DNA of 64,000 nucleotides from Lunularia cruciata (Eukaryota; Streptophyta; Marchantiopsida; Lunulariales; Lunulariaceae): positions 43,414,333-43,478,332 of the forward strand of contig OX419756.1 of NCBI GenBank assembly GCA_948567375.1. Direction: 5' to 3'. Shown here in pieces: positions 13,551 through 62,092 of the stretch. Under the pieces are notes generated by a model. That model was not told where the DNA came from. It worked only from the letters and a program-made list of their open reading frames with translations, and ran no database searches. Made by a program: the position numbers and the translations under genes. Each line of letters starts with the position of its first letter. The first letter of the stretch is position 1.

Positions 13551-13574
13551 TTACGTATTAAAAGGAGGGAAGTC

Positions 13575-26845: not shown

Positions 26846-27535
26846 TGTAGCACCAATTTGTACATATATGTACTATTGTGATATTTAGTTTGGTATTATA
26901 AGTACTTGAGAGATATTATTTATACAGAGATAAGTATGGTTCTACAGTAATCATGATTAGGTAAAGTTGCTCATAGCTAAGATAGAGTAGACCTTACTTT
27001 AGAGAAAGTGGAAAAGATGAGCACCACTATTTTGGATTCTAGTGTGTTGACTTGGTATTATTCTTAGGTGTTTGGCTTTGAGAAAAGAGTTGAAAACTCT
27101 TGGGCCCGCAAGACTTTTTAGTTTGGATTCTTCTATAGTCCAAGGATAGCACATGTGAAGGAATCCTTTGACTTAATAGTTGGATCAAGATAAGATCACA
27201 TGCTTAGGAGAATATTCTCATTAGTATGGATATTCTTTTAGTTTTTTGACTTTATTTGACTTTTAGTCTAGTAACTTGAGTTACTCCAGTAATTAGTAAC
27301 TTTGGTGCATAACTATTTCACAAGTATATAAACAAGGGGTGAGGTGATACTCATCATCCTTTCAGTTGCAACTATCTCTCTCTCATTGAGTTCTCTAGTG
27401 AACAATGGCTTGAGTCTTGGAGTGTTAGCCTTGGAGGAGTATGATGGAGTTGGGGTTCCTTCCCTTCTTGTCCATGATGTGCTACCATAACAGCCATCAG
27501 AGGTTTTTTCTAAGTGAGAGATAGGCCGGCTCATA
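26846..27535 (+). repeat. Lone Athila/Tat-like LTR (690 bp)
   Basis: Full length against E3 and E9 LTRs: starts TGTAGCACCAATTTG and ends GGCCGGCTCATA. The flanks (AATAT left, GTACA right) do not match, so this is not a clean solo-LTR insertion. Its left border coincides with a tandem-repeat edge and its right border with the methyltransferase fossil. Confidence 0.85.
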
Positions 27536-27539
27536 GTAC

Positions 27540-28510
27540 ATCCTACGTTGCTCTACTAAGCCAAGGCTCACAATCCAAGTCAAACAATTCAGGTCCATAG
27601 CCTGACCTAACACTTGATGCTTGGATGCCTTTGACACTACTGAAACAACGGTAATACGAGTGTGAAAACCCATCACCTGCTTTGTCTCATCAGAATTGGG
27701 CTCCACCAATTGTTATAACTATGAGTCCCAAAACCAATCTAGGACCTCCCTCTCAAAAAGCATGAGAGCTTGGAAAACTCATAAGTGTGGGAAAAGTGGC
27801 TCTAGGCTGTCCAACAAGGTTCACCACTACCATAGGTGACCTATCAACCACTACTATCATTTAAGACTGATGCACAACATTCAAGATACCATCAACAATG
27901 ATGTGGTCTAATTGTTGAATCCCGTCATAAGCATGCTATAGAACCTCTCTACATAAGAGGTTCATAAACCAAATACAAAGATGATGAGCTCGTGATCCCA
28001 GTGTGGCTGCATCTAACAAAACAGTAGGTCCCATCCAAGAATGGACCTAATATGTACTCACCACCACTTTGGTGCAAGAATCACCCATCAAAGGAACATT
28101 CTCCAAAAGATAAGCTAGGGAAATGGACTAATGGACATAGAGATGTCAAAGTATGTGTAACATCTCCCAAAACACACAAAAATAGGCATCTTGAAGACCC
28201 AAATATTGCCAACATGTTTATGTCCTTGATATGGCCATCCAGCAATCGCCAAGTGAATAGGACCATGTCTCTCCAAGTCCTACATCCCCAACAAGGAAAT
28301 ATCTACTAGTAGGGTCATGTGGTAACCCTTGACTGTTGACATTGATAATAACTCAAGATACCAATAAGCCAAGTGTACCACATGATGTAGAGAGATTTGC
28401 CTATCAGTCTCATCTCTCTCTACATACAAGTACCTCTATACTCGTATACCCGGCTGTAGGACCGCAACTAGTCCAATGCTAATCCCACCAAATAACTCCA
28501 ATAAACATAC
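27540..28510 (-). pseudogene. E6 cytosine-5 DNA methyltransferase domain
   Basis: Motifs appear in correct order on the minus strand. Motif I, which binds S-adenosylmethionine, is LELFGGISIGL at 28469-28504, followed by a motif II-like RYLYVERDE. The motif IV neighbourhood is HLAIAGWP at about 28226-28258, with GHxxxG after it. Motif VI is ENVPLMGD at 28080-28104. A motif VIII-like LGSRAHHL lies near 28000-27975, and a C-terminal MDLNCLTWIVSLGL at about 27562-27604 matches the end of the catalytic fold. The order and spacing fit a compact C5 methyltransferase (Pfam DNA_methylase). If once active it would have methylated cytosine in DNA. Fossil, broken. Confidence 0.72.
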
Positions 28511-28879
28511 TCTATGTACTAGATACTACCAAGCAATGAGTGTGGTATCCAAAGGTGCAAGGTAGTTGACTTTAGAGGCTCATCCTCACACTCATCTCTT
28601 GATGGTACATAGGTTCCACTCCAAGCATGTTGCACCAACCGATCTACACATTGCTACAATGCCTCCTCTAAACTCCACAATGGAACATCCAAGGTAGATG
28701 GAACAATCCCACTTGTACTCCAAATTTGAGTGATCTTTTCTGGTATTGGAGTATCCTCTACATAGGTGCTCCCCACCAATAAATCATCGGGCCAAGTAAC
28801 TACATCACTGAAAGCAAAAACTGATGATGCCATGGTCTCAAACTGTAGTGAGCCAAGACTACCACTATTGAAGCATATT

Positions 28880-29240
28880 GGTAGGCAACATACTTGTCAC
28901 TCACCTGACTGCCAACTTGGTCAATAGAAGGTTGTCTCCTTCCGATAGTCGAAACTGAAACCTTGCTCTCCCAAGTAGCACATCATATGACTTAACTATT
29001 GTTGCAATAGTCTGAGCTCTCACCATTGAGCTATCAATTAGGTGACTAGGATGAACCTAGACAAAAAGCTCCCCATGTGTGATGCACTATGTCAAACCAC
29101 CACCTAGAGATGTTTGGATCTGAAATGGACACCTCTCTACATTGGTCTTTTGTAACTCCACATTGACAACGACAACCTTCCCCAACATAAGAGGCTACAC
29201 ACTAGAGTCAAGTAAGACCCTCTGTGGTGTATACACCTTC
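28880..29240 (-). pseudogene. E6 retropepsin
   Basis: TPQRVLLDSSV at the low end of the 29195-29695 frame, followed by QPLMLGK and ERCPFQIQTSLGG, matches the D-S/T-G region of a retropepsin. Further on are SSMVRAQT and KSYDVLLG, the C-terminal part. The copy in E10 reads RVLLDFGV at about 63030-63055 and MLYPMGFTIDYWEE, YRPGWQS at about 62740-62806. It would cleave the polyprotein. Confidence 0.62.
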
Positions 29241-29950
29241 CTTGAAGGTCCCACCAAATGAAAAATCCCCTTCTGGTTATCCAACAAGGCAACACCAGGT
29301 GTAAACCGTGCTCGCTCAAAGGCCGGTCTAGCTAGTAACTCCTCCAATCTAGCCATTGTTGCCTGCCACAAACCATTGGTAACTGAGCAAATCCCATGCT
29401 CCTCAACCAAGTCAACTCCACTATCAACCACCTCTACTCTAGTAGTGAGGACCACATCATCCCTACCCTCACAAAGCATGGCATCCAATCGGAACATTGG
29501 GGTTGGGTCAACTCCCAATGTACACATGTTATTGGCTGAAAATAAAGGATAGTGCATAATCAGCTGAGCCACCTCCAACATTATGCTAGACTTAGTCCAT
29601 GCAGTAGTAGGTGGTTGACTAGTAGGTAGTCCATAATGCACCCCATCACCACCTACCACACTTGCATTAAGATGTCTAAGAGCCATAGATGACATCTATA
29701 GGGCCTTAGAGAGCGTGAAAGACTAAGGAAGTCTGACCTATCTCTCAACTTCTCCTCTCTGTGGGTCCAACTCCACTGATGCTCCTCTATGCTCTGGAGC
29801 ATATACTTCACTCCTAGTCACTACGGTGGAGGCATCTACCTGTGCTGCTCCGCACATGAAATCCAAAGCATCTCTATCACCATCATATGAAGTAGAAGCC
29901 TCTACACCCAAATTTGATCTCCTCTGAGCTATGGCCATGCTAGCCAATCT

Positions 29951-30170
29951 CTACTCCAACTGCTCAATGCAAGTAGCCATGGCTGTATCGGAAGTAAGGG
30001 CAGGAACTGCACCTCTACTAGGTGTGGATCCTCTACCACCACCTCTACCACCTTGTCCTCTATGACCTAGAACTCCTCTACCACCTGCCAAAGCAACCCT
30101 ACCACTACGTAACTCCAAGTGTAGGTCAAAGCACCAATCACTAGAGTGACCAAATTGTGGCAATGCTCAC
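29951..30170 (-). pseudogene. E6 zinc-knuckle and Gly/Arg-rich linker
   Basis: GHSSDWCFDLH is the second half of a CCHC knuckle, followed by a GGRGVLGHRGQGGRGGGRGS nucleic-acid-binding linker. It lies between Gag and protease, as in Gag-Pol precursors. Confidence 0.6.
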
Positions 30171-30695
30171 ACTACCTTTGTGTTGGCTATGATGCACCAA
30201 AGGTATCAAGTATGTTGCCCTTAGGATATTATCTCTTGTGATGAGGTCTACCACAAGTCCAACAAGCAACACCACTACTCATTGGCTTCTATTGACCCAA
30301 AAATGAAGGTAAGGGTCTAGCTACAGTAGGCCTTCCACTCATAGGATATGAGTGACATAGGATCTGGACTATCCACCCTGTCCTCAAAAACCAATTGAGC
30401 GTGGTGCACTTTATTGCACTCTAGAAGTAGTCACAGTTATGGATGAGGTCTCCCTACCAAATCTAGATGTCACTACTCTCTCCTCCACCATATTGAGCTC
30501 AATATGATCAGCCAAACCAAAGACCATAGCCAAAGTAGCCTGTAACAACGTAGCATCACAAACTCTATCTCACAACTCCTTGTCTAGTATCCCATACCAA
30601 AACTGGACTACTTGGGCCTCAATAACTCCTTGAGTGAAATTGATCAGCCGTCTCATGCAAGTGTATGCCTCATGTAGGGTCTCTCCAACCTTCTG

Positions 30696-31076
30696 CTAGA
30701 ACTCCTGCAAGCTCCTCAACTTATCAATCTGCACTCCATGGTAGTTTTGCCTCAAACATTGGAAGAACTCCACCATGGGGTTAAACCTTGGTACTATGCC
30801 ACCTCCTATAGTGGTACTTCCACTTGTAGTAGCACTATCTCTAACTAGTGCACCTCCACTAGCTCCACCAATGCTACTTGTGCTAGAACTTGTAGGTATA
30901 GCCAATCTACCCTTGGCAACCGAGCCTGAAGTGATAGAGATATAGTTTAGAGACCAATACCGTCCCCATAACTCAATCTCCTCAAAGTGCGCTCTCCTAA
31001 ACTCATGGTAGTCATCCATTGGCAAACTTTCCAAGTGCTGAAATAATCTCTTCCATACCATGAAAGGTGTGAACAA
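30696..31076 (-). pseudogene. E6 Gag-like region
   Basis: A 126-aa stretch with AHFEEIELWGRYWSLNYIS, a Ser/Thr-rich linker, and FNPMVEFFQCLRQNYHGVQ, followed downstream by RLINFTQGVIEAQVVQFW-type residues typical of the retrotransposon Gag core. This is the expected nucleocapsid precursor upstream of a protease. Lineage not resolved. Confidence 0.6.
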
Positions 31077-31100
31077 AGTTGGGTTCCATATTTATTGTAG

Positions 31101-33000
31101 ATCACACCAACTATCAAACTCTTGGATGGTCATCCAACTTAATGGTACTCATTGTACCAAAACAATGCCTAGGACCTTTGGAGACCCCATAAATCTTATC
31201 CATGTCTCATAACAATGGTGAAGATACACCAAGTGCACTCTCAATTGAATCAACTCTTATGTCAAACTCCAACTCAAAGTCAATCTCCTCCCTCATTGGG
31301 ACTTGAGATACAAGTTGATACCGAGCGCCACCTTAAGTAAACCCATTACATACTACAACGCTATCTCTTCTAGAATCTCCAAAGATCTCCGTTGTGACAA
31401 AATAACCACAAAGCGCCAACCGCAACCGCAAGTACCCCACCAAGTACCAACACCAACTAAGCACCACAAAGTGCCAGATACCAATTGAACACTACCCACT
31501 AATCTAACTCTAACTCAGACAACTACATTAGGAGAAGTGCGACTTGTAACCTGCCATCACAACATGCACTTTCACAATCTGCAGGTCGTCACTTCCTACC
31601 TCACCGGAAAGAAACAAAGGTAGTCTTATTGATCATCACTCTAGCCTCACCATTGAGAGCACACCAAAGCACCAACACTCTAAATTCAAGACACCTCACA
31701 CAAACGTGGTGCACAAACGAGAAGCAGAGAATGAAGGAGGTCCAATCACAAGAAATCATAAAGTAGCTCGGGATCAACTTTGTCACCATTTGGCATCTGA
31801 CAAAATAGGAGTTCCTATCTACATCCTAAGTTACTAGGATCACCAAGAATGGGATCAAACAACCTCTCCTATCCAAAGCTACAAGTGTATAGATAATAGT
31901 GGAACAGTCATTAGGACAACAAGTGAGGGTGGACCAATTGGCAAGGGCACCAATCTAGGAACCAAAGATCTAGGGATCAAACCTTGTTGCGCACAATCTA
32001 GAAGGATGGGCAGATTTGGCCAAACAATGACCAAGATCTACTCCAAACTAGCTAGCCTCATGCCAACAAGTTGGCTTGCTGGCCCTTCTAGGCCTTTGTA
32101 GCCTCTCATAGCCCACAACCATATGCCTCGAAGCCTCTAAATACCCAAATGAAGCCTTTCTTTTTGCCACTTTGAACCCTCTCTAAATATGGCAAGACTC
32201 CTCTAAATCTGTGAAACTCCTCCAACTCAAGTGAAAATCCTCCAAATCTGGCCAAAATCTGACGGAAACTCTAGCAAAAATTAACAAAATCCCTAAAGTT
32301 GGCAACCACCAAATCCTCCACTAACTCTTCACTCAAGCTAAATTGAAAAAAATGGTTTCTACAAATCACAAATTCACAAGGGTGGGTACCCAACTCCACC
32401 TTCAATTTCACTTTCTGAACCCAAATCGTAACAAATTGGTCTTGCTTTCACCTCCTAAGCTCAAAGTCATAACTACCATTTGAAAATTGCTTCTCTTTGC
32501 TTGAAATTTGGCCAGCACTTCCGCACACCATCTGCCTCATTGCCAAATTTGCATCAATCAAATGAGCTTCTACACATTAGGGAAAACTTGAATTTTGATC
32601 AAGGTACCAACGATGAGTGAGTCTTGGACATACCACCAACACTCTCAATTCCTATACTCGATTTCCTCCCTAACTTCACTTCTCTAATGTAATCAATTTT
32701 TTTACACCACTTGAATCAACTCCAATTTAGATCAATACTTTGATTTGTCACTCTATAAACTGCCAAAAATTGGGTACTGATTACAATCAAGTCACACCCA
32801 CTCTAGCTAAGAGAATCCAAGTGACGCTCACCAGCTTCTGTCCACCATAGCCAGGAAATCGAAGGCTTAACATTAGAGAAGTGAGCTCTTTGGAACTGCA
32901 CTTTGAAAGTATACCCCTAGACTCAAAAACTCTAACGGTCTAAAACCCTAATGGTCCCATTGACAGCACACCCAATGGTGCAAATGGTGCAAATTGACGA
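31101..33000 (-). other. Region upstream of E6, possible leader or LTR
   Basis: Noncoding on both strands. The minus strand would be the 5' leader of E6. No LTR pair, primer site or family could be fixed because no second copy lies in the window. GCGCCACC and AACCGCAACCGCAAG patches near 31325-31430 are the only distinctive features. Confidence 0.35.
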
Positions 33001-39630: not shown

Positions 39631-39679
39631 TTTACCCCCGGACTAAGTTTTCACTTTGTCCTCAAAGTGAAGGTCTCTC

Positions 39680-40680: not shown

Positions 40681-40681
40681 A

Positions 40682-46457: not shown

Positions 46458-46461
46458 AAAA

Positions 46462-48527: not shown

Positions 48528-49089
48528 TCACAACCCATTGAATGCAACTAAATATGGACAGAACTTTAACATTGGCAATGAAGCTTGAACAATACGATTG
48601 TGCCAATGAGGCCAATCCAAGAAGCCATTTACCATGAGCCTACATTTAGAAAGATCGGTAGCAAGCTGCTCTAGCAAGAAGGACTGCCAGCCGGGCAAGT
48701 AGAGAGAGCGTTTGATTACAAAAAGGCTTTGAACAATTGACAAGCCAAGCAGTTTGAGCGCAAGCAGCCAGATGCCTGGCGCACTCCTGAGACCAACCGA
48801 TCCCCATGACATAAGTGGAAACCATGTTGGGGACTCTTGGGGCTTGTGCTTAGATGTTAGGACCAGTTGGAGTTGGAGAAAGGAGCGAGGACAAATTGGA
48901 CTAATCTAATTAGTTAGTTGTGTTGAGGTAGAGATGGGGCCAGAGGCTTCATCTGCAGCTATGACAAGGGAACAAGAGATCTCACTGATTGTCATGGCAA
49001 CCATGAGAGCCATTAAGGATCAAGATGAGGAAAGAGATAGGGTGAAAGCGTTGTCTTCACAAGTCATGAGCATCCACAGGACTAGCACC
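48528..49089 (+). other. Noncoding DNA with one short Gag-like start
   Basis: 48934-49128 reads MGPEASSAAMTREQEISLIV, then a charged helix (KDQDEERDRVKALSSQV); it resembles the N-terminus of a plant gypsy Gag but is too short to assign. The rest shows nothing recognisable. Confidence 0.35.
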
Positions 49090-49480
49090 CAACATCAAAA
49101 TATCATCAACACTAAGGTGATCCCATAGTTGAATCCCATCATAAGCCTGCCATAGAACCTCTCTAGGTAAGAGGTTCTTCCACCAAAGACAAAGATGATG
49201 AGCCCATGATCCTAGTTTGGCTACATCTAACAACATGGTAGGTCCCATCTAAGAACAGACATAAAGTATATTTGCCACTACTTGGGTACAAGAATCACCC
49301 ATCAAAGGGATGTTCTCCAACATGTAAGCTAGAGAAATGGAATGATGAACCTAGAGATGTTGTATTATACGTAACATCTCCCAAAACACACTAGAATGGG
49401 GATCGTGGAGACCAAGACCTTGGCTAACACAAGTATGTACTTGATATGGCCATCCTAAAATCAACAAATGAATAGGACCG
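49090..49480 (-). pseudogene. E10: second methyltransferase-bearing fossil, C-terminal part
   Basis: Homologous to 27890-28260 of E6. It carries ENIPLMGD (motif VI, 49294-49318), LGSWAHHLCLWW (motif VIII-like, about 49195) and the motif IV neighbourhood at about 49441-49475. It stops at AATAGGACCG where segment Y begins; the rest of the domain is at 62093 onward. Confidence 0.72.
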
Positions 49481-49592
49481 TTGTCGTGTTGTGGTTTGCA
49501 TAGGCCGTAAGAAAGTGACTAATCAATTTTATCTCCACATTAGTGGGGTAGGTTGTTTGCTAGATCCAACGGATGAGATGCTGCTAGGTGAG

Positions 49593-50331
49593 TGTAATAC
49601 CAAGGGTTAGCCATATGATCTAGATGTGAAATTTGGTTTGGTAACATCTAGAATGATTTTATACATGATGGTCAAAATAGATCAGATAGAAGTATCACCA
49701 AAAGAGTACTTCTACTAATAAGGCAGAAACCAAAATAGACTTGAGAACCTTAGAACCAATAGCTAGACATATGATTTAAAGGTGAGAATTGGTTTGGTAA
49801 CATCTGGAAGGATATTACACATGATGGAATAAACAGATCAGAAAGAGGTATCACCAAAAGAGGACTTCTACTAATAGAGTAGGAATAGAAATATGCCTGA
49901 AATCTTTGAAGGCAATTTCGGAAACCTAAATAGATGAATTAGGCTTTGAAAATGTGTAGATTCCCCTCCCAACAGAGGATAGGCTGGCCTTCCCTCCCCC
50001 CTGCTTTGTCTCGTCGAGAGCTTTCCAACGGTACCTTACTCACGTGATTATGAGATTCCTACAAGAAGATTCCCTAAAAGATTCCCTCCGGTCAAAGCTT
50101 GTTTGACCAACCAGATAGGACCTAGACCAGACAGGTCACCCATCCAAGTAAGTAATCCAAGGGTGGAGCTTGCTGACATGTCACCTATCTGTGTCCCTAA
50201 TCCTATGGTGGAGCTTCCTTGGAGGAGATCCTCTTTGTCTATATAATAAAGAGAAGGTGCTCCCTTGGGGCATCGAATGTTTGAGTTTACAATCTGTGTT
50301 TTCTCTCTTCTCTTGTCCTCGGAATATTACA
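49593..50331 (+). repeat. 5' LTR of E11 (739 bp)
   Basis: TGTAATACCA...GGAATATTACA. A TATA box ATATAATAAA lies at 50241-50250, with the leader start expected about 30 bases downstream. Confidence 0.95.
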
Positions 50332-50332
50332 A

Positions 50333-50344
50333 TGGTATCAGAGC
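50333..50344 (+). other. Primer binding site of E11 (initiator tRNA-Met)
   Basis: TGGTATCAGAGC, one base after the LTR. Confidence 0.93.
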
Positions 50345-50468
50345 GAGTGTTCTAGTCCAAGAGAGTGGATCACCCCTCTTGGAATAGCACGAACCACTGA
50401 AATTGAGTAATTTGAGGTGGAGAACATAGAGTAATCGCTAGACTTAGGAAGGACTTTAGAGAGCGGAT

Positions 50469-50900
50469 GTGATGGATGCGCCGGGGGGACAATTTCCCAC
50501 ACCTAGCTTTCCATTCTCAAACCCATTCCATATCAAGGTTATGTACATCCAGCGTGAGCAGATGAGAGTATCGCTAGTTTATCACTTTGGTGCGGAATTC
50601 ATGGACAGAGTGATGAACTCACAAAACCCAGTGATTCTACTTGTGGTGATATATGACAGAAGTGGGATTTGATGATCTACATTCTATTATGATAATATGG
50701 ATATGAATGTCCCAAATCCTCTCCCTTTCAACACTCAAGTAGAAATCCGTTATGTAGTGAGGCCGAAAGTGATGTTTAGAGATTTTGTGGTTAGGCATTT
50801 TGGTGAGGAGTATTATCAACGAGTGATAGCTTCTAAGGTCCCAATGGTAGTTCCGATAGTTCGTGCACCTTCCAGAGTGATTATATTGACTCTGTATTGA
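50469..50900 (+). pseudogene. Leader ORFs of E11 upstream of gag
   Basis: Two frames (50469-50672 and 50697-50900, 67 aa each) sit between the primer site and gag, as in E2. The first opens MMDAPGGQFPTPSFPF and includes FGAEFMDRVMNS; the second includes NPLPFNTQVEIRYVVRPKVM and FGEEYYQRVIASKVPMVVPI. They share a VMY...FG(A/E)(E)...P(V/M)...I pattern. Canonical chromoviruses do not have such ORFs. They might be a split 5' extension of Gag; function unknown. Confidence 0.6.
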
Positions 50901-50945
50901 AGTAGACGTTAGCAATTGGGTGTTGCAGGAACCATGGATCCGTAG

Positions 50946-51950
50946 TTGCAAGAGCTGGTGCAAGGAATGCAAGGGATGTTGAATGAATTTCAAGAGATTA
51001 AGATGACCATGGAGACATTACAAAGTCAAGTGCAGATTCTTAGGCACGATCAAGCCATGCAAGAAGAAGAGCTATCTCAAAACCCAATACTTGTGACTGA
51101 AGTACTTGGAGAGGCACCCGTGCCTACAAACCCTATCAATGATGAAGCCACATTGCTACTCCGGATGAAGAAGACCTGCAACATTGAGCCTTACAAGGAG
51201 TAGCGTACGATGAGAGTAGTGGAGAATTGGATCTCGAGAATGAATCGATATTTTTGATTGTTCTCAACAGAGATCACAGAGCATGTTGCAGGTGTGTTTG
51301 CATGTGGGTACTTGACCGATAAAGCCCTCACATGGTATGATGCTTGGGAACGATCTATGCTGGCAGAGAGAAGGGAGGTCACATGGACAGCAATGCAAGA
51401 AGGACAGCTGAAGAATTTCCAATCGGTGGATTTTGTGCAGATGGCTCGAACCCGACTATGGGGATTGAGACAAAAGAATAGCGTACAAGAGTATGTGGAG
51501 GCATTTCTGGATCTACAAGTTGCAATTACCGACATGAGTCCAGCAGAGGCTCTTGACAATTTCAAACGAGGGTTGAAAGAGCGGATTTGCCAAGAAGTCA
51601 TGGTGCAAAACCCTTGCACGGTATTTGAAGCTATTGCTTGTGCGCAGAGAATAGCCGGAGCATTAGGTGGAGGTGAAGGAGTAGTTCCACCTCAACATTA
51701 TCGGGCAGAAATGCCACACATGGGTGGACCAATACCGATGGAATTAGGCAACCTTCGATTCCGGCATCAAGGAGCACGGCCGCTTCAAGGGGAGCGGGGA
51801 CGGGTAGAAGAACAAAGAGATGGAGTCCCACAAGGAGAAGGGACTCAAGGAGAACAACGCCGTTATTACAATTGTGGCCGTATTGGGCACATATGTACCA
51901 ATTGTTGCACTCGTTTCCCTAGAGGCCCTCGGCCTTTGTACAGGTGATCT
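50946..51950 (+). pseudogene. E11 gag
   Basis: N-terminal coiled coil (MNEFQEIKMTMETLQSQVQI) at 50979-51040, then the Gag core with LTDKALTWYDAWERSML, FVQMARTRLWGLRQ, VQEYVEAFLDLQVAIT and ALDNFKRGLKERICQEVM. A basic Gly/Arg/Gln-rich linker leads to the knuckle CGRIGHICTNC at about 51873-51905. It would form the particle shell and bind RNA. Confidence 0.87.
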
Positions 51951-52059
51951 TTGAACAACATGGAGAGGCACATTGAAGAGGAGGAGGTGGAAACCACTTC
52001 AAAAAACAAAGATTGCCAGTAAATGTACCTTGCGGCCTTACTGGCTCAATAAAGAAGCA

Positions 52060-52420
52060 GAGAAGCGAGGGAAGGAAGAAGAATAAGGTGCAAATATCCC
52101 AAAAGGCAACCTCACAATTGATTGTTGTGAATGGAATCCTAGAAGGTAATCAAGTGAGAGTATTAATAGATCCGGGAGCAACAGAGAATTTCTTGTCTCG
52201 CTCTATTGCAATAAGCTTGGGAATGGATCTAGAGAGAGATAGAAGTGAAGAAGTAGAGTTACCAAATGGGCAAAAAAAGAGGATTGAATCATTACCTAGA
52301 TAGGTAACCCTCTCTGTAGGAGAATATCAGGAAGCAATTGAGTGGCGAGTGATACAATTAGCCCGTTATGATGCAATTTTAGGCATGCCATGGATGGAGC
52401 AGTACAACCCAATGGTGGAT
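52060..52420 (+). pseudogene. E11 retropepsin
   Basis: VRVLIDPGATENFLSRSIA (D-x-G active site region) at about 52160-52215 and [15 protein letters not shown] at about 52365-52410, the two hallmark halves of the gypsy protease. Confidence 0.86.
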
Positions 52421-52599
52421 TGGAGGAAGAAAGTAGTGAGAACCTACCAATGGTCAATCATTGGGGTTAAAGAAAAATCACACATGCAGAAACTGCCTCT
52501 ATATGTCGTAGGGACAACAACTATTTGTAAGACCAATAGATGTTTTATGGGTCTAATAAGAGAAGTCCTGAGTGCACAACTCGCTGGGCAAATTCCTGA

Positions 52600-53480
52600 G
52601 AAATTGAAGGATGTGGTGGATGAGTTTCAAGATGTCTTTCCCGATGATCTACCCTCAGGATTACCACCTAAAAGGCGAGTAGATCACAAAATAGAGACAC
52701 TCCCGGGGAAGACACCTCCTTGTAAGGCCCCATATCGCCTATCACCTCATGAGTTGGAGGAGTGTAAGACTCAAATTGAGGAGATGCTACCAAAAGGGTT
52801 CATCCAACCTAGCGTATCACCATATGGGGCCCCTATCTTGTTTGTGAAGAAGAAGGATGGTACAATGCGCATGTGCATTGACTATCGGGGTCTCAATCAG
52901 CAAACAGTGAAGAACAAATACCCCTTACCTTGCATGGATGACCTGTTTGATCAACTCCATGGAGCGAGATACTTCACCAAACTGGACTTGCAAAGCGGTT
53001 ACAATCAAATCCGAATTGCAGAGGAGGATGTATACAAAACTGCCTTTCGAACCAGGTATGGCCACTTTGAGTATCTTGTGATGCCTTTTGGCCTCACCAA
53101 TGCGCCTGCCACTTTCATGAGCCTAATGAATGACATATTTCGTCCATACTTGGATAAGTCTGTTATCGTCTTCTTGGATGATATCTTAGTATATAGTAGC
53201 ACAATGATAGAACACAAACAACATCTACAAGAGGTCCTCCAGATTCTAAGACAGAATTAGTTGTACGCCAAAATCTCAAAGTGTGAGTTTGGCAAGTCTG
53301 AAGTAGACTACTTAGGGCATAGAGTAAGTGCAAAAGGCATTCAAGTATTGACAGATAAAATAGAGGTCATTCAAAAATGGAGTGCCTCAGAAGATCAGAC
53401 TCAACTTAAGAGCTTCTTGGGGTTGACGGGATTCTATCGTAGATTTGTCAAGGACTTCTCCAAGGTTGCACAGCCTTTAA
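52600..53480 (+). pseudogene. E11 reverse transcriptase
   Basis: [18 protein letters not shown] entry, [53 protein letters not shown] and [12 protein letters not shown] (catalytic DD), then the thumb CEFGKSEVDYLGHRVS and LGLTGFYRRFVKDFSKV. Complete set of Ty3/gypsy RT motifs. Confidence 0.92.
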
Positions 53481-53589
53481 CGGCACTACTTGGCAAGGGG
53501 AAGAAGTGGACATGGGGAACCGCACAAGAGTTGGCCTTTCAAGAATTGAAGGCCGCTTTGCCACATGCACCAATCTTCACGTGGTATGA

Positions 53590-53950
53590 CCCAAAACGTC
53601 CAATCAAGTTGGCTACGGATGCATCAAGCATAGCAATAGGAGCAGTCCTACAACAAGAGTGGCATGACGGATGGCATCCAATTGCATATTTCTCTCAAAA
53701 GTTGCTACCGGTAGAGCACAACTACCACACCACAGAACGAGAAGAGCTGGCCATCGTTCTAGCAACCAAGCATTGGAAGCACTACCTGGGCGAGAAGGCA
53801 TTTGTAGTAGAGATAGACCACAAACCTCTAGTCTACCTCAAGATGCAGAAGGATCTATCTCGTCGCCAAATTCGGTGGGCAGAGTGGCGACAACGCTTCA
53901 ACATGACAATCACCTACGTAGAAGGTAAGAAGCAACTTGCAGATGCATTC
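53590..53950 (+). pseudogene. E11 RNase H
   Basis: KLATDASSIAIGAVLQQEW, TEREELAIVLATKHWKHYL, VVEIDHKPLVYL and the end region VEGKKQLADAF. Catalytic D, E and D are visible. The equivalent point in E2 near TTCTAGCAACCAAG is where E12a inserted. Confidence 0.9.
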
Positions 53951-54099
53951 ACCCACATGCCAATGGCCAACAACTTGGTGGTAGAGGTTAAGATTAACCT
54001 TGAATTTTGGCAAGAGATTCTAGCTGCTACAAATACTGACCCACAGATTGTAGAAGCGCAATCGTCCAAAGGTGTCACCAGCACCCAAGGACTCACCTT

Positions 54100-55160
54100 T
54101 TGGGAGGGCCAATTGTGGATCCCAAATGTCCCAAAATTATGCACCACCATTCTAGCGGAATGTCATGATTCGGCCATTGCAGCTCATGTCGGAGTGGACA
54201 AGACCTTGGAGGCAGTCAAGCGCCATTACTATTGGCCCAAGATGAGCAACGATGTGATGGACTATGTGCGTAGCTGCCTACTTTGTCAACAGAAAAAAGC
54301 TTCTAATCAAGCTCCTGCAGGGCTCCTTCAACCTCTCCCCACTCCTACCCAACGTTGGGAACAAGTGAGTATGGATCTCGTCTGTGAATTACCCAAGACC
54401 ACCTCAGGGTTTGACTCCATTGTGGTCTTTGTGGACCGGCTCAACAAAATGATTCATGTACGCCCTACCACCAAGGAGGTGACCGCTCCACAACTAGCTC
54501 AACTATACTTAGATGCAATCTTTGCTCACCATGGCTTGTCTAGAGTACTCATCACCGATAGAGGCACCCAATTCACTAGTTTGTTTTGGCGAACACTCTT
54601 TGGTTTCTTCAAAACCAAGTTGGCCATGTCTACAGCTTACCACCCACAAACAGATGGCCAAACAGAGCGGGCTAATTGCACGATTGAAGACATGTTACGC
54701 AGCTTCACCTTAGAAGAGCAAGAGAGGTGGGACACCCTACTACCGTTGGTGGAATTTGCTTACAACAATTCAGTGAATGCCTCCACCCAAGTCACTCCGT
54801 TCTTCCTCATGTATGGTGAGCATCCCTTCACACCTTCTAGCTTGATGAAGATCCGTCCAGTGACTACCAAGGTTGATGCAGTCAACACATTTGTTTCTAG
54901 AATCCAACAAGGTGTGGAGAGCGCCAAGCACAAGTTATAGATTGCACAAAATTGACAAAAGCAGTATGTTGATGCACACTATCGGCACATGGAGTTCAAT
55001 GTTGGGGATCAAGTGTGGCTATCGACAACCAACCTCACATTAATTGGATCTCGTAAGCTCAGACCTCGTTTTATTGGGCCTTTCTCGATTCTTCATTGCA
55101 TCGGCGTTGTGGCCTATCACCCTGAGCTACCACCACACATGAAGATCCATCCAGTGTTCC
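54100..55160 (+). pseudogene. E11 integrase
   Basis: The HHCC zinc module HVGVDKTLEAVKRHYYWP...CLLCQQKK is at about 54185-54295. The core has MDLVCELPKT (first D), LITDRGTQFTSLF (second D), the STAYHPQTDGQTERAN helix (E) and LPLVEFAYNNSVNAS. The C-terminal domain has FNVGDQVWLSTTNL and RPRFIGPFSIL. Confidence 0.9.
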
Positions 55161-55239
55161 ATGTCTCCCTATTACGCAAATATGCTCCCCGATCAGGCCA
55201 AGGTACTTCCACACAGGACATTCTACCTTGCCCGACAGT

Positions 55240-55425
55240 CATTGATGGCATAGAGGAATATGAAGTGGAGTGGATTCTCCAAAAGCGCATGCGTGGTACT
55301 TGCCATCCGCGGGTGGAATATCTAGTACAATGGAAAGGTTACCCCCTCTATGAAGCAACCTGGGAACCCGCTGCCAATTTGGCACATGCACCAGTGTTGG
55401 TGCAAGCATTTGAGCAACAATTGCA
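55240..55425 (+). pseudogene. E11 chromodomain
   Basis: EYEVEWILQKRM, then VEYLVQWKGYPLYEATWEP and LVQAFEQQ. This is the classic chromodomain ending of chromovirus integrases, which guides insertion toward methylated histone H3 in heterochromatin. Aromatic-cage residues (Y, W) are recognisable. It explains the preference for repeat-rich targets. Confidence 0.9.
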
Positions 55426-55445
55426 CAACGAGGATGTTGCGTCTT

Positions 55446-55458
55446 AAAAGGAGGGAGG
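55446..55458 (+). other. Polypurine tract of E11
   Basis: AAAAGGAGGGAGG immediately before the 3' LTR; primer for plus-strand cDNA. Confidence 0.85.
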
Positions 55459-55460
55459 TC

Positions 55461-56199
55461 TGTAATACCAAGGGTTAGCCATATGATCTAGATGTGAAAT
55501 TCGATTTGGTAACATCTAGAATGATGTTATACATGATGGTCAAAATAGATCAGATAGAAATATCACCAAAAGAGTACTTCTACTAATAGGGCAGAAACCA
55601 AAATAGACTTGAGAACCTTAGAACCAATAGCTAGACATATGATTTAAAGGTGAGAATTGGTTTGGTAACATCTGGAAGGATGTTACACATGATGGACTAA
55701 ACAGATCAGAAAGAGGTATCACCAAAAGAGGACTTCTACTAATAGAGTAGGAACAGAAATATGCCTGAAATCTTTGAAGGCAATTTCGGAGGCCTAAAAG
55801 GATGAATTAGGCCTTGAAAATGTGCAGATTCCCGTCCCAATAGAGGAAAGGCTGGCCTTCCCTCCCCCTTGCTTTGTCTCGTCGAGAGCTTTCCAACGGT
55901 ACCTTACTCATGTGATTCTGAGATTCCTACAAGAAGATTCCCTAAAAGATTCCCTCCGGTCAAAGCTTGTTTGACCAACCAGATAGGACCTAGACCAGAC
56001 ATGTCACCCATCCAAGTAAGTAATCCAAGGGTGGAGCTTGCTGACATGTCACCTATCTGTGTCCCTAATCCTATGGTGGAGCTTCCTTGGAGGAGATCCT
56101 CTTTGTCTATATAATAAAGAGAAGGTGCTCCCTTGGTGCATCGAATGTTTGAGTGTACAATCTGTGTTTTCTCTCTTCTCTTGTCCTCGGAGTATTACA
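55461..56199 (+). repeat. 3' LTR of E11 (739 bp)
   Basis: Same length and ends as the 5' LTR. A TATA box lies at about 56109-56118. Confidence 0.95.
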
Positions 56200-56204
56200 G
56201 TGAG

Positions 56205-56594
56205 CCATCTATGTACATGTATGTGATTGGCCACATGGATTACAATCTTATCATGTTTGAGGGCTCTAATGAATAAAGATGAGGGTGAGTGGAGAGACGG
56301 GTGTGTTTTAGTTGAGGAGTCTCGTGGAAGAGGAGGATGTTGGGAGTGAAAGTTTTAGCAAAGAGCGAGTGTTAGAGCATCAGAGGAAGCATTTGAGCAT
56401 GAGATGTCCCATGTTCCCGATCTGCCACTCCTGAATCCTTTTCTCATCTGGCTTCAGATTTTACACCATGACAAATTACGGGATTGGTTGGTGGTATGTT
56501 TTGGGGTGGTATTTGTGGAATTGATGATGGGAAACCCGGATCCTATTGTCCTTTTAGTGCTTACTTATGAAAATGTCTGGGACTTGACAATATG
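56205..56594 (+). pseudogene. Y segment with a leader-ORF relative
   Basis: Frame 56404-56646 reads DLPLLNPFLIWLQ, FVELMMGNPDPIVLLVLTYE and VWDLTICV, resembling the first leader ORF of E2 (FMDKMMNSPNPVILPTVIYD, WDLTIY). E12b is inserted into its end. It shows that this small ORF family exists outside the E2/E11 family. Confidence 0.55.
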
Positions 56595-56810
56595 TGTGGT
56601 ATCCACATTTTTTTTGTTTTTTTCAAAATGGAGAAGAAGTGTATAGAGAAGTCGGATTGCGCCTGTATGACCAAAGAAGGCAAAGAAAAGAGTCCTCGGG
56701 ATAAAAACCGAGGTAGTGTGGCTTTGGTTCATAAGATCGGACTTGCCTTGTCAGCATGAAACCCAAAGTCAACTTCGGGTCAAGACGTGAAGAAAAAGCC
56801 AAAGACAAAG

Positions 56811-56832
56811 ATAGAGAGAGAGAGAGAGAGAG
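56811..56832 (+). repeat. (GA)n microsatellite
   Basis: About eleven GA units within the 5' noncoding part of E12b; absent from E12a. Confidence 0.9.
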
Positions 56833-57007
56833 ACTTTGTACTAGGCGGTACGAGCGGATCCGAAGAACCTGTAACAAAATTCTTCGGAGTCGGCGTAATC
56901 AAGAAAGTACGGGGGAAGAAATAATGACCTCATGATCAAGAACTTCTTGATAGTGACAGGCAACAACTTCACCGAATCAGAAATTTGAGAGGAGTAGTGA
57001 CTGAAGA

Positions 57008-57980
57008 GTGACTGATTGGCACAGGACTATAAAATTACAAGGTGTGCAAGAAGAAGGAGCCATGTCCACTCGCTACCCAGTGCCTATTCAGAGTCAACCA
57101 AAAATAATGCAAATTGCAAATCCGCAAGAAGAGGAGTGGGTTAGGATTTCGGGGACAATCTTCCATAAGAGAAAAGTGAGGAAGCACAAGATGGCACTGA
57201 AAGTGAGCAAGCAGAGTGCGGTGAGAGGGCTTGCAATTTGTCAATTAGAAGTAATAGCGTGGATCAAAGTCTTGACAAGACTTCATATCACATTCTTGGC
57301 CTGGAACTGGAATTTCAGATTTCCAGGTTTCATGGTAGAAATTGCAGCCAACAATTGCAAGGATGGGCCAAAGCATGAGGGGAAGAGAGGGAATCCTGCT
57401 CGATGGATGGAGGCGGATTAGTGAGTAGTGTTGGGAAGGGAAGCCGGAGAGGTAGGAGGTACCACCTTCTATCAGAAGTGTGATGCTTCAAAAGAAACGG
57501 CCAATGTTAGGAAGTCGTTCAATTGACCCCGCACGAAGAATGGGTATAAGGTGGATAGCTATAGAGACCCTGAGTGGAGAGGAATTGTAAGCGCGATGAT
57601 GGCCATGTTCAAGCTAGAGCAAACCACATATGTTACTATGCAATAGGTGGTGTTCTTTCACCAAATATTTGCGGGAGAGGCAGTAGATTGGGCGAAGTGC
57701 TTGCATCAAAGAGTGTGGTAGATGATTTCAGGATGGAGAATGGATATGCCACCACACTATTTTGTGCCATTTGCAGCGCACTTTTATTTTGGGTTGAGCT
57801 TACTAACTTCGGAAGAGCAAAGTCAAATGAGGTCGGACTTTCATCCAGATTTGCGCAAGGAAGTCAATATAGATGAGCGATATTATATGGAGAGAGTGCG
57901 AGAGAGAGATAGGTACTACAAAGAGAGTAAGAGAGAAAAGATCATAGCAATTGACCTTCCAAGGGCGTGGTAGAGGACCA
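57008..57980 (+). pseudogene. E12b N-terminal protein region
   Basis: Blocks FLAWNWNFRFPGFMVEI with EGKRGNPARWMEAD (about 57290-57420), NGYKVDSYRDP, VVFFHQIFAGEAVDWAKCLH (about 57650-57705) and MPPHYFVPFAAHFYFGLSLL (about 57745-57805). A charged helix follows (YYMERVRERDRYYKESK). Same order as in E12a. Unknown family; resemblance to Gag or plant-mobile-type helical domains is only suggestive. Confidence 0.62.
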
Positions 57981-58006
57981 AGCCTGAGAGTTGTGGTGCG
58001 AGCCCG

Positions 58007-59573
58007 ATGGCCGTGATAGTGAAGTCAAAGGAAGTCTTGCAGGAGGAAGAAGAAGAATCAGAAGGAGAAACCGGATCAAAGGGAGGAGTGTCAAGCAAAG
58101 AAGAGGAGTTTACACTACAAAGCAAAGAATCAAGTAGTAGCAGCAAAGGCGAGGCGGAAGTTCAGCAAGTGATACAGCCAATGGAAGGGGTCAAAAGCCG
58201 AGTCCCGAGGTTTCCATGCTGGAACAATGCAATAAGAAGAAAGGAGAAGAAGTTGAAGCACAACCTCAAGCGGCCACACATGATAATGTTCTAAGTGTAT
58301 TGGCAGTAGGACCTAGTAACCTAACTCAAAAAGAGGGAGAAAGTTCTGAGGAGGAAACTTTGAAGGTGCAAAGATCTTGACTTTGGAGCAAGGTACCAAA
58401 TATAGAAGAGTCGGAACCCAAAGTCCGAGCCAAGGATGCAAGGTGCAAAGGAGTGGACTATTTGTCCAGAGTATTATGCCCATTGTTGGCAATGTTGCAG
58501 TAGAAGAAGTTGGAGATGATAAGTGCCAAGCTCGACGTACCTGATGAATTAGGGGTGGTAAAAACCTGGAGTGCCAAAACTTCGTTGTTACAAAGTAAGC
58601 TTACAAGAGTGGAGATGGAGGTTGAAGAACTTTGGGTTGAGGAGGTTCTTTGGAGTAAGCACTTTGAGGTGACAAGGGAAGAGCTAGTCAAGAATTGTGA
58701 GGAAGTGAAGGAGATGACTGCAATGACTGCAGGATTGAGGGGAGAACTCGCAGCAGTGCGTGTTGAGTTGATACACTCCAAGGCAATTGTTGCGGTGATG
58801 GAGCAAGAGTTGGAGCGCCTTAAGAAGAGGGTAGCGGAGAAAGATCAGGCCTGGCCACGAGAGTTGACAGAGATAGTAGAGAAGAAGATCGTTTGAGAGG
58901 GTTGATACGAGAGGCAGAGGAACAACTCTTTGTACATCAGAAGGAGAAGGAAGCATTGAAAGCTAAATTTGAAGATGAGCTTCAGATGTATCGTAGTGAA
59001 TTGGAAGAAGAGAGGAAGAAGGAAAAGTGTACGGTGATGGAAGAAACTAGTGAAGTAGAAGGTGTCGTTAATGAAATTAAGGCCATGCTGAGTACAGAAG
59101 TGGAGTGTAAACTCAAAGAAGCCAGGTTGCATGAGTTAAAGTTGCTAGTGCAGGAAACGCGTAAGAGGAAAGTGAAGGACACCGAGTTGAATAATCTGTT
59201 AATCCGGCTGCGAGATCATGTAGATAGGAAGATGTTAGAGGTGGAGGACAATGTGTGTCTTAGACTAGACCTTATTAGGACAAAGTTAGCTAAACTTTGT
59301 AGTGAGGTAGAAGAAGTACGAAGACCCAAAGTTGCAGAAATAGGAGTGCAAGTGTCTTTGGATTTGACATTTGACACTTTAGAGAGGAGTGGGTCGGAAG
59401 ATAAAGTAGTAGTAAGATTACCCAAGACCTCAATTGTAGATCAGAGTGGAGAATTAGTAGAATTGGTAGAGGATGTAGGAGTTATGAGATCCAAGGATAG
59501 GATAGTCATAAGTGAGGTTACTTCGGGTTTGGGTTTGAAATCCGATGATGAAGTAGACATCGGATCGGATTAG
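58007..59573 (+). pseudogene. E12b coiled-coil region
   Basis: Acidic Ser/Glu-rich segment (EEEEESEGETGSKGG), then coiled coils at 58510-58896 (MEVEELWVEEVLWSKHFEV; LERLKKRVAEKDQAW) and 58893-59573. It contains the conserved RLHELKLLVQETRKRK, VDRKMLEVEDN and RLDLIRTKLAKL and ends EVDIGSD. The C-terminal block is the best-conserved part against E12a. Confidence 0.66.
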
Positions 59574-60365
59574 AAATAGAATCAAGATTTGAAGAGGCAG
59601 ATGTGAAGAGGTGCATTGTCATTTCGGATCTGCAGGTTAGAAGAGTTGATGTAGAATGGTATTTTGTTAGAACTGCCATTTGCTTCAATATTTAAGGGAA
59701 GCACTCGCAGTCATATGTTGTTCAGTGCTCATTATTTCCAAGAATAGATCAAGCAAAGTGTTGTGAAGCAGTGCTCGTCGCTTGAGCTTGATTCCGAGTA
59801 TCAACATTATGATTGTGTTTGTGAGTGTGTGGAGAAATTCAAAATGCATGTCAGAGTGCATGTTGGATGTTGGATTCCACAACCTTGATCTGCATTCTAT
59901 GTGTTTGATCCTGAGTGAAGTGCAATCAAAGCAATGCATTGACAAGTCTGAGAGGAATTGTAGTGCTCGTAGTATTCTGCATTTGTGAGTGCAATGCAAA
60001 GTTGATGTGAAGCAAGTTTGATCAAGGAAGTTGTGCCTTTAGTGGAGGGGTGGAACACAATTCTGAGGCAAAGTCATTTTGCAGTGAAGTGTTGTTCTCA
60101 AAAGAGCTTGAATCATCACAATCAAGATTGTTTGGAAAGATTTGATGGAGTTGTGATTATGGAGTGTTAATTTGTGACAAGACTGTGAATCAGTGCTTGT
60201 TACTCTCTTCTGGGTGTGGTTTCTACCTAAGAGATTAAAGATGCAACCAAGAAGAACTGAAGTTGTTACTTTGCTTCGTATTTGACCAATTCTAACTCGT
60301 ATCTCTACGGGAACAAACTTTACTTACCCAATTACTGCAAAAGTGATATTTGCCGGGTTGTCACA
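59574..60365 (+). other. E12b 3' noncoding region
   Basis: Conserved with 11081-11873, including AATATTTAAG, AAGAATAGATCAAGC, GGTGTGGTTTCTACCTAAGA and TACTTACCCAATT near the end. Confidence 0.55.
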
Positions 60366-60370
60366 ATATG

Positions 60371-62092
60371 TGTCCTACTTTAAATGGGGAATGCCTAAAT
60401 TTTGGTGCATAAGCTTCAAGGTGGAGTTGTGGGGTCCATTTGTCAATAAAGTAAAAAGACTAAAGGACAAATGTGCAAGAGCTTGGGTCCCAAGAGAGAA
60501 GGCTGGAGTTTTTTGACCATCGGGGGAGTTTGGAAACATCATTTGGACAATGGAGACCAAGGTTGGAAAAAAGAGATGACAAGCTACAATATGAAGACAG
60601 AAATCACATAATTTGAGCTAAGTATGAGAGGGATATGATCAATTGAGTCAAAGGGGATAGAATTCATACTCAGGAGAATAGAGTAGGCAATTGGGAGAGC
60701 TTCTTGAGACATTTTCACTATCTATTAGTAGAATTGGAGAGTAGACATAGTGCTTACGGTACTGAGCACAATAAATTTCAGTTTTGGGTCAATCTCAAAT
60801 CAGATCTAATTGATGAAGTTGAAGCTTATGGGATGTAAGGTGTTGGAGAAGAGCTAATGATCAAGTTTGGAGTTTTGGTCACTTCTCAAGTTGTGGTTCA
60901 AATTTCCTTATGAAAATTTCCAAGGTTGTTGGTGGGTACGTTTTGCACCTCTATGCAAAGGTTTCATGTGAATTATTCAAATAGAGAACTCTAGGTCTTG
61001 GATCAAGTATACTTGGGTTTGTAGAGCTCACAAGTTAGCCTAGCTCAGGAATTGATCCACATCTTTGAATTGGGGTTGGATTAGGCTACCAAAAATTGCA
61101 AGAGTTTAGAAAATAACACAAACAGCTACTGTGGAAGAAAATTTTAGTTCTAGATCTATAAAAAGTGAGATCTGATGCAAAACATTCTGTTGAAAATACT
61201 ATCATAAGCTTGGTAGAGAGCAGTTTTATCTTTCATCTTGATTGGATATCGGTTCTCCTATCTTGTGACTATGATTGAGTGCTTTAGGTTGCCAGAGTGT
61301 TTGTGAGGATCAATTGTATTTCTGAATCAGAAATCAGGGGAAAATTTGGCAGGAACCAGGAGCAAACCCTAAAAAGGGGACTTTGAAATTAGGGTGAAAG
61401 TTGCAAAACTCTGGCCAACTTTGAGAGCTTGTCTGAGAGTTGTAGTGATCTTATTGAAGTGTATTTTATATCATTGGAAAGCTGATCTCACAAGCTTTCC
61501 CTTGAATTCTAGAGCTCTTGAATCCAAGCTATACAGAAATAGGTATATTCATATGAGCTACACAGAGTTTTCCTCATCAAAAAGACATAGAAAGTCCCCA
61601 CATGGAAGTAGAAATTTGTTGAGATCTGAAGTACAAATGGGAGGAGGCTTGGAGTACATGTTAAAATGAGCTTGATGACAAAGCAAGAAGGCTTTGAAGC
61701 TCTTTTTGATCAAAAGTACAGAGAGTTGTTGCCGTATTCTTGTGATTGGATCCTCTCTGTATTTGTATGCCTGTTTGTACGCACAGTTGGCTTGGATTGG
61801 TGTGCGGGCATTGCGCTTAGATTATTTCCTTGTAGGAGTGCTCTGTATTTCTCCTTGGTAATGCTAGAAGTGATAACCAGCCAACAAGGAGTGCATGTTG
61901 TGATGACACGTTAGGTCGCCCGACACTACCCTTCCCGATAGCAAGAATATTAGTTACGAGAAAGGAGGGTTCCGGTGATAGGGTCACACACGTGTTCAGT
62001 CAAGTCCTTAGGGGTTTACCTCTAGCCTTTGATCTGTTTTCTCCACAGTAGGCACCCTATGTGTTCCCAGAGAGAGAAAAGAAAAGTATGAT
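60371..62092 (+). other. Remainder of segment Y, no gene recognised
   Basis: Mostly noncoding. Short frames at 61394-61669 and 61666-61914 carry no motif I can name. The style (long leader-like DNA with scattered short frames) fits a decayed retroelement leader. Confidence 0.4.

What the first reader, a model, noticed from the sequence alone, without database searches (positions are those of the whole stretch)
27536..31100. Retroelement fossil carrying its own cytosine-5 DNA methyltransferase
Seen: Gag-like region, knuckle, retropepsin, then methyltransferase motif I (LELFGGISIGL), the motif IV neighbourhood, motif VI (ENVPLMGD), a motif VIII-like block and the C-terminal MDLNCLTWIVSL, all in order on one strand. 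Established: C5 methyltransferases use these motifs in this order, and acquired methyltransferases have been described in dinoflagellate and charophyte retrotransposons. Inference: a land-plant lineage of such elements exists here and may have written methylation on its own copies.
Basis: partly seen in the sequence, partly recalled or inferred. Interest (0 to 1): 0.92.

Follow-up and report, generated by a model that had tools for sequence, protein, structure and literature searches.

The report
Dead retroelement carrying a DNA methyltransferase
The stretch is the worn-out front half of a plant jumping gene (gag, protease) fused to a DNMT3-type DNA methyltransferase, one of a family whose more intact relatives sit in liverworts, peat mosses and green algae, so a DNA-marking enzyme has travelled inside self-copying DNA in land plants too.

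Summary
Confirmed and extended. Minus strand 31203-27539 follows residues 1-1204 of a 1278-residue Marchantia polymorpha protein (P0069): gag, zinc knuckle, protease, C5-methyltransferase, in eight blocks with 28 in-frame stops. A second copy (63083-62093 plus 49479-49078) is split by a 12.6-kb insertion with a 5-bp target duplication. The decayed pieces miss PF00145, but three searches gave 219 relatives, best E 1.3e-71 for the window's own profile. The enzyme is DNMT3-type, not CMT/MET or DRM. Named hosts: Marchantia, Calypogeia, Riccia, Sphagnum, Closterium, Mesostigma. Both copies fall in a supported clade whose named members are all bryophytes. In relatives the enzyme sits between protease and reverse transcriptase, or, in a second clade, between RT and integrase. 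The window copies are dead: even codon decay, catalytic Cys changed to Tyr in both. The precedent is KnitGypsy-Dnmt3 of Klebsormidium (PMC5890265); nine paper searches listed no land-plant case. Self-methylation is inference; the precedent's enzyme gave none in yeast, judged inconclusive there.

The parts
30375..31203 (-). copy 1: gag-like region, start Met conserved at 31203
   Evidence: tblastn to P0069 residues 1-25 (31203-31129) and 27-270 (31127-30375, 56% identity)
30220..30339 (-). copy 1: zinc knuckle, decayed (CxxC and H kept, last Cys lost)
   Evidence: tblastn to P0069 280-316, aligned to CWTCGGDHQRRDC
28964..30151 (-). copy 1: spacer and retropepsin-like region (active-site block about 29177-29215)
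   Evidence: tblastn to P0069 341-721; to P0018 27-233 at 29590-28970; two relatives scanned, P0087 and P0122, have Asp-protease Pfam matches below the curated cut-off
28591..28962 (-). copy 1: linker between protease and methyltransferase
   Evidence: tblastn to P0069 727-850
28205..28561 (-). copy 1: DNMT3-type methyltransferase, motifs I to IV; motif I 28501-28469; catalytic codon 28231-28229 reads Tyr
   Evidence: tblastn to P0069 864-982 and P0002 30-148, 61%; codon
27732..28199 (-). copy 1: methyltransferase motifs VI (ENVPLMGD) to VIII and the following region
   Evidence: tblastn to P0069 985-1140
27539..27730 (-). copy 1: C-terminal methyltransferase block (LGQAMDLNCLTWIVSLG), truncated at 27539
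   Evidence: tblastn to P0069 1141-1204
26846..27537 (+). long terminal repeat of another family (that of the element at 38937-47151) that abuts and truncates copy 1
   Evidence: 88% identical to 39630-38935 and 47151-46464; no target duplication seen at its ends
62093..63083 (-). copy 2, upstream half: protease end, linker, methyltransferase motif I
   Evidence: 76% identical to 28262-29252; tblastn to P0069 654-707, 708-791 and 814-951
49078..49479 (-). copy 2, downstream half: methyltransferase motifs IV to VIII; catalytic codon 49446-49444 reads Tyr
   Evidence: 49090-49479 is 80% identical to 27875-28264; tblastn to P0069 963-1090 at 49479-49096 and to P0025/P0028 down to 49078
49482..62092 (.). 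12,611-bp insertion that splits copy 2, itself holding a chromodomain Ty3/gypsy element (about 49593-56199)
   Evidence: ACCGT at 49477-49481 and 62093-62097; LTRs 49593-50334 and 55461-56202 96.6% identical, GTGAG on both sides; RNase H, integrase, Chromo domains

Best explanation
Two decayed copies of a Ty3/gypsy-type LTR retrotransposon lineage of streptophytes whose polyprotein carries a DNMT3-type cytosine-5 methyltransferase, in the bryophyte-type clade between protease and reverse transcriptase. In a working relative the enzyme would be made as part of Gag-Pol, packaged in the particle, cut out by the protease, and would methylate newly made element DNA (cDNA or the fresh insertion), so that a new copy enters the genome already marked. 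Shown: domain content and order, DNMT3 kinship, conserved catalytic residues in relatives, agreement of RT and methyltransferase distances, and that the window copies are dead. Inferred: packaging, cleavage, cDNA as substrate, and the benefit (looking like self DNA, resisting attack on foreign DNA, or damping its own activity so that the host tolerates it). I hold the identity part near 0.95 and the self-methylation part near 0.45; the figure below is for the whole.
For: Colinear match of 31203-27539 to P0069 residues 1-1204. 219 relatives in three searches: best E 1.3e-71 with the window's own profile; 7.5e-186 and 2.7e-153 (59) with relatives as queries. Profile of 20 relatives against PDB: DNMT3A 4.9e-17, chains named DRM2 from 1e-5, DNMT2 and HhaI near 4e-4 to 5e-4, none named DNMT1 or CMT among the 52 sequences at E up to 10. 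Motifs I, IV, VI, VIII, X in unrearranged order. AlphaFold model of P0002 (mean pLDDT 63.2, pTM 0.72; blocks of residues 31-140 at 77-88) best matches DNMT3A, Foldseek E 3e-13. Catalytic Cys in 86 of 90 near-complete relatives, motif VI Glu in 89 of 90. Protease before methyltransferase in 54 of 54; of 28 with RT, 15 have RT after it and 13 before it. RT and DNMT distances agree, r 0.838 over 20 proteins, 0 of 9999 permutations as high. The window pair joins 22 relatives, 13 of them named and all bryophyte, in a clade with SH-aLRT 99. Two SymbioDIRS-Dnmt3 enzymes methylated CG de novo in yeast: PMC5890265 (abstract; sections 9, 10, 11 read).
Against: No window piece scores against PF00145. No RT, integrase or LTR of this family was identified in the window, so the element type is taken from relatives. 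Both window copies have Tyr at the catalytic Cys and share two stops (IAW*Y, GM*DL), so their common source may already have been dead. KnitGypsy-Dnmt3, the nearest described system, showed no methylation in yeast (inconclusive by its authors). CpG loss is as strong in element A, where I found no methyltransferase, so there is no special trace of self-methylation.
Confidence: 0.7

Rival explanations
1. A fragment of an ordinary host methyltransferase gene (CMT, MET1, DRM or DNMT3) picked up once by chance by a retroelement.
For: Plants do carry such genes, and retroelements can carry host gene pieces (general knowledge).
Against: Protease and methyltransferase in the same order in 54 of 219 relatives, with named hosts from liverworts, Sphagnum, Closterium and Mesostigma; two copies in this window; relatives found are retroelement-type proteins; no DNMT1 or CMT chain matched.
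Confidence: 0.02
2. The lineage in this genome had a catalytically dead methyltransferase before these copies were made, so the domain had no enzymatic role here (kept for DNA or RNA binding, or merely a defective subfamily moved in trans).
For: Tyr for Cys in both copies and two stops shared; differences between copies 74/66/75 at codon positions 1/2/3 of 349/347/349 sites, no third-position excess.
Against: Most other stops are not shared; Tyr also occurs in 2 of 90 relatives, so the change can recur; only two copies seen.
Confidence: 0.3
3. The enzyme acts on RNA (genomic RNA or primer tRNA) rather than DNA.
For: PMC5890265 (section 11) offers RNA methylation for the Symbiodinium LINE enzyme; neither that enzyme nor KnitGypsy-Dnmt3 methylated DNA in yeast (section 10).
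Against: Nearer to DNMT3A/B than to DNMT2 (5e-17 against 4e-4); the yeast result is inconclusive by its authors.
Confidence: 0.12
4. The methyltransferase works on the host or on chromatin: it marks the integration site or dampens the element's own expression so that the host tolerates it.
For: 20 of 219 relatives also carry a PHD finger, behind the integrase in P0109; PHD fingers read histone tails (general knowledge).
Against: None of the 22 relatives in the window's clade shows a PHD match, though few of them reach past RT, so absence is not shown; no expression or methylome data.
Confidence: 0.15

Closest known systems
KnitGypsy-Dnmt3 of the charophyte Klebsormidium nitens (PMC5890265; abstract, sections 9, 10, 11 and passages read)
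   Same: Gypsy-type LTR retrotransposon with an unrearranged DNMT3-type domain in the Pol reading frame; conserved key residues; streptophyte host
   Different: Its sequence and exact domain order were not available here, so direct kinship is untested; the paper calls it an acquisition in the K. nitens lineage and a word search of its text found no Marchantia and no moss; here the family reaches bryophytes, Closterium and Mesostigma
SymbioDIRS-Dnmt3 and SymbioLINE-Dnmt of Symbiodinium (PMC5890265)
   Same: Retrotransposon-borne cytosine methyltransferase; domain order differs between the DIRS structures
   Different: DIRS and LINE elements, not Ty3/gypsy; dinoflagellate hosts
Animal DNMT3A/DNMT3B, and bryophyte DNMT3 (PMC6453930: start of abstract in a listing, and two passages)
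   Same: Same catalytic domain type and motif order for the animal enzymes; bryophyte host DNMT3 was not compared
   Different: Host genes, not fused to gag, protease and RT
Plant DRM methyltransferases
   Same: DNMT3-related
   Different: DRM domains are rearranged (PMC5890265, section 9); here the order is the ordinary one and the match is weaker

Membership tests
C5 cytosine methyltransferase (PF00145) | profile match above the Pfam cut-off | tested here: inconclusive
   window pieces: none; relatives above the cut-off of 22 bits: 6 of 8 and 6 of 7
C5 cytosine methyltransferase (PF00145) | catalytic Cys in motif IV | tested here: not met
   Tyr in both window copies; Cys in 86 of 90 relatives, Tyr in 2, gap in 2. 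The window copies are pseudogenes of the family
DNMT3 type | closest to DNMT3 among solved methyltransferases, motifs in unrearranged order | tested here: met
   (on relatives); the profile of the two window copies also ranks DNMT3A first, E 0.0017
MET1/CMT (DNMT1 type) | match to DNMT1/CMT | tested here: not met
   no chain named DNMT1 or CMT among 52 sequences at E up to 10
Ty3/gypsy LTR retrotransposon | gag and knuckle, protease, RT-RNase H followed by integrase | tested here: met
   on relatives: P0107 and P0109 carry RT, RNase H, integrase in that order by Pfam; P0100 (Sphagnum) shows gag, protease, methyltransferase, RT, integrase by blastp with seed domains
Ty3/gypsy LTR retrotransposon | own LTRs, RT and integrase present in the window | tested here: not met
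   no RT match of this family beside either copy; copy 1 truncated at 27539 by a foreign LTR; no LTR pair defined
KnitGypsy-Dnmt3 | sequence kinship of methyltransferase and RT | not testable with these tools

The most novel reading that the evidence does not exclude
A single ancient capture: one Ty3/gypsy lineage took up a DNMT3 domain before land plants arose and has carried it, mostly with catalytic residues intact, from Mesostigma and Closterium to liverworts, Sphagnum and the plant of this window, while the domain came to sit in at least two places in the polyprotein (before RT; between RNase H and integrase, with a PHD finger added). Retrotransposon-borne DNA methylation would then be an old, standing trait of streptophyte genomes and not an oddity of one alga.
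Probability: 0.4. Interest if true: 0.78.

Novelty: new member of a known kind. Interest (0 to 1): 0.6.

Why it matters
Plants silence retrotransposons by cytosine methylation; an element that brings its own methyltransferase turns the silencing mark into something the element itself may control. In the literature I could search this is described for dinoflagellates and one charophyte. Long open frames of the family are annotated in Marchantia polymorpha, a standard laboratory plant, which makes the question testable: does the element methylate its own cDNA or insertion, and does it gain from it?

Tried and rejected
Pfam scan of the decayed pieces, split and X-joined: no methyltransferase hit; solved by relatives. 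One scan of viral contigs and one of prokaryote genome contigs with alignment A3: 17 and 12 pattern matches, no relative confirmed. Search of the window's own genome: nine attempts with one and the same request, none answered, so copy number and host are unknown. Codon-position test between the two copies: no third-position excess (it covers three of the four aligned stretches of copy 2), so no evidence that the domain was under selection in this genome. CpG depletion (o/e 0.17, 0.05, 0.12 in the copies; 0.28 window; 0.45 in a younger chromovirus; 0.14 in element A) fits long methylation but cannot tell self from host methylation. The idea that 48281-48811 and 63093-63617 (inverted, 71%) are terminal repeats of copy 2 was dropped: copy 2 lacks gag on that side. 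The solo-LTR reading of 26846-27537 is not proven: no target duplication. RT tree: the 22 methyltransferase-linked rows part from 4 partial RT rows of other gypsy elements of the window (96/97), but these few rows of one genome cannot prove a single capture; 9 of 23 inner branches were open. DNMT tree: quick search, SH-aLRT only, 34 of 90 inner branches open, the one outgroup row partial and very long; no host DNMT3 of plants was included.
Full report
What is there. In copy 1 the minus strand from 31203 to 27539 follows the first 1204 residues of P0069, a 1278-residue protein named hypothetical protein Mp_4g09160 of Marchantia polymorpha, in eight blocks in changing frames. The blocks carry 28 in-frame stops in all. 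Block identities are 41.5-57.6%. The same query reached at most 27.7 bits in 20 dinucleotide shuffles of the window, against 250 bits for the best real block. The order is gag-like region with its start Met, zinc knuckle, spacer and protease, linker, methyltransferase. The similarity ends at 27539, where the LTR of another family (26846-27537) begins.

Second copy. Window 63083-62093 and 49479-49090 match neighbouring parts of copy 1 (29252-28262 and 28264-27875). ACCGT stands at both inner ends, 49477-49481 and 62093-62097, so one copy was split by one insertion of 12,611 bp, which in turn holds a younger chromodomain gypsy element with 96.6% identical LTRs and GTGAG on both sides.

Is it a methyltransferase. 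The decayed letters alone do not pass Pfam. A profile of the two copies gave 68 relatives at E up to 0.001, best 1.3e-71, and ranks DNMT3A first among solved structures, weakly (E 0.0017). A search with P0002 at polyprotein length gave 59 (only the 7993 candidates sharing most words were scored), and a profile of eight diverse rows gave 126, of which 120 were listed (same limit); together 219 different proteins. Relatives match PF00145 above its cut-off in 6 of 8 and 6 of 7. A profile of 20 relatives matches DNMT3A (4.9e-17) and DNMT3B best; chains 4onj and 4onq, named only 'DNA methyltransferase' and recalled by me as a plant DRM, follow at 5e-9 and 1.6e-7, then DRM2 from 1e-5, DNMT2 and HhaI near 4e-4 to 5e-4; no chain named DNMT1 or CMT is among the 52 listed. 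Motif order is unrearranged. The predicted fold of P0002 is of middling confidence (mean pLDDT 63.2, pTM 0.72; residues 245-310 poor); its best matches are DNMT3A chains and the 50 rows shown, of 158 at E up to 0.001, are entries of DNMT3 proteins.

Is it a retroelement lineage. By blastp with seed domains over all 219 proteins, 54 show a protease match and the methyltransferase, protease first in all; 28 show RT and methyltransferase, 15 with RT after it and 13 with RT before it; 132 show the methyltransferase alone and say nothing on order. P0107 has methyltransferase, RT, RNase H, integrase; P0109 has RT, RNase H, methyltransferase, integrase, PHD finger (Pfam). Rows whose source name gives an organism: Marchantia polymorpha 21 (partly several assemblies of one species), M. 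paleacea 1, Calypogeia fissa 3, Riccia sorocarpa 1, Sphagnum 3, Closterium 1 (P0122), Mesostigma viride 1 (P0170, read from the label Mesvir1), and one bacterial metagenome bin (P0130, probably misbinned); the rest name none.

Tree. Of 219 proteins, the 90 that cover at least 80% of the domain model were used with the two window rows and a partial DNMT3A row (quick search, SH-aLRT only, 34 of 90 inner branches open). The window rows pair with each other (100) and lie in a 24-row set (99); of its 22 other rows 13 are named, 11 Marchantia, 1 Calypogeia, 1 Sphagnum. Their place within it is unresolved and their shared branch is long (0.51). All 13 rows with RT before methyltransferase lie in one 23-row set (96), which holds no row with the other order. 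In an RT tree of 26 rows the same 13 form a set (96/98), and the 22 methyltransferase-linked rows part from four partial RT rows of other gypsy elements of the window (96/97). RT and methyltransferase distances correlate over the 20 proteins that have both (r 0.838; 0 of 9999 permutations as high), as if the two domains had travelled together.

State of the window copies. Differences between the two copies fall evenly on codon positions (74, 66, 75 of 349, 347, 349; summed), the mark of neutral drift. Both read WPYQ for WPCQ; two stops are shared (IAW*Y, GM*DL), most others are not. So either their source was already defective or these changes recurred; of 90 relatives 2 also have Tyr there and 2 a gap. 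CpG o/e is 0.17, 0.05 and 0.12 in the pieces, 0.28 in the whole window, 0.45 in the younger chromovirus and 0.14 in element A, where I found no methyltransferase: old methylated DNA, but no special trace of self-methylation.

How it probably works. In relatives of the bryophyte type the enzyme lies within the polyprotein between protease and RT. The likeliest course is packaging, release by the protease, and methylation of the element's cDNA or fresh insertion. Packaging, release and substrate are inferred. PMC5890265 showed CG methylation in yeast by two SymbioDIRS-Dnmt3 enzymes and none by SymbioLINE-Dnmt and KnitGypsy-Dnmt3, the latter called inconclusive since human DNMT3B failed as well (section 10); its discussion offers cDNA methylation as self-marking (section 11).

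Known or new. The closest described system is KnitGypsy-Dnmt3 of Klebsormidium nitens (PMC5890265; abstract, sections 9, 10, 11 and passages). A word search of that text found no Marchantia and no moss. PMC12344493 (passages) says that some DNMT3 members are embedded in retrotransposons, as reported in streptophytes and dinoflagellates, citing the same paper. In PMC6453930, PMC9516144 and PMC10952607 (passages only) I saw no retrotransposon-borne DNMT3. Nine answered paper searches listed no title or abstract start that reports methyltransferase-bearing retrotransposons in land plants; most of the papers listed were not opened, and subscription papers and most preprints are not held. Hence: new member of a known kind, with a wider host range and a second domain arrangement that would deserve a report of their own.

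Limits. No DNA of the relatives was at hand, so constraint was judged from conserved residues, not dN/dS. Kinship with KnitGypsy-Dnmt3 and with plant host DNMT3 genes is untested.

Noticed in passing
P0109 and others, not in the window: A second clade of relatives has the methyltransferase between RT/RNase H and integrase, often with a PHD finger behind the integrase (20 of 219 rows show a PHD match); apart from one EukProt label without an organism (P0156), these rows carry no name that tells the host.
   Followed up: partly
8077-11872 and 56594-60365: Two stretches with matching parts (65-81% identity in three pieces) and long open frames rich in charged, coiled-coil-like sequence; four of these frames gave no Pfam hit. 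One lies inside a chromovirus copy, the other belongs to the insertion in copy 2. Possibly a large non-autonomous element.
   Followed up: partly
49593-56202 and 3907-14313: Chromodomain Ty3/gypsy element: one full copy with 96.6% identical LTRs, GTGAG duplication and long open RNase H-integrase-Chromo frames, so fairly young; an older copy at 3907-14313 is interrupted.
   Followed up: partly
38937-47151 and 14312-20441: Gypsy element with 95.8% identical LTRs and an inverted partial copy; its LTR also abuts copy 1 at 26846-27537.
   Followed up: partly
25924-26854: Tandem repeat array (a 291-bp pair 100% identical, and shorter units) right beside the LTR that truncates copy 1; the units contain the first bases of that LTR.
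   Followed up: no
48281-48811 and 63093-63617: Inverted pair (71%) flanking copy 2 on both sides; origin unclear.
   Followed up: partly
P0130: A relative named as a bacterial MAG protein (Candidatus Obscuribacterales) sits among gag-protease-methyltransferase rows in the tree: probably contamination of the bin.
   Followed up: no
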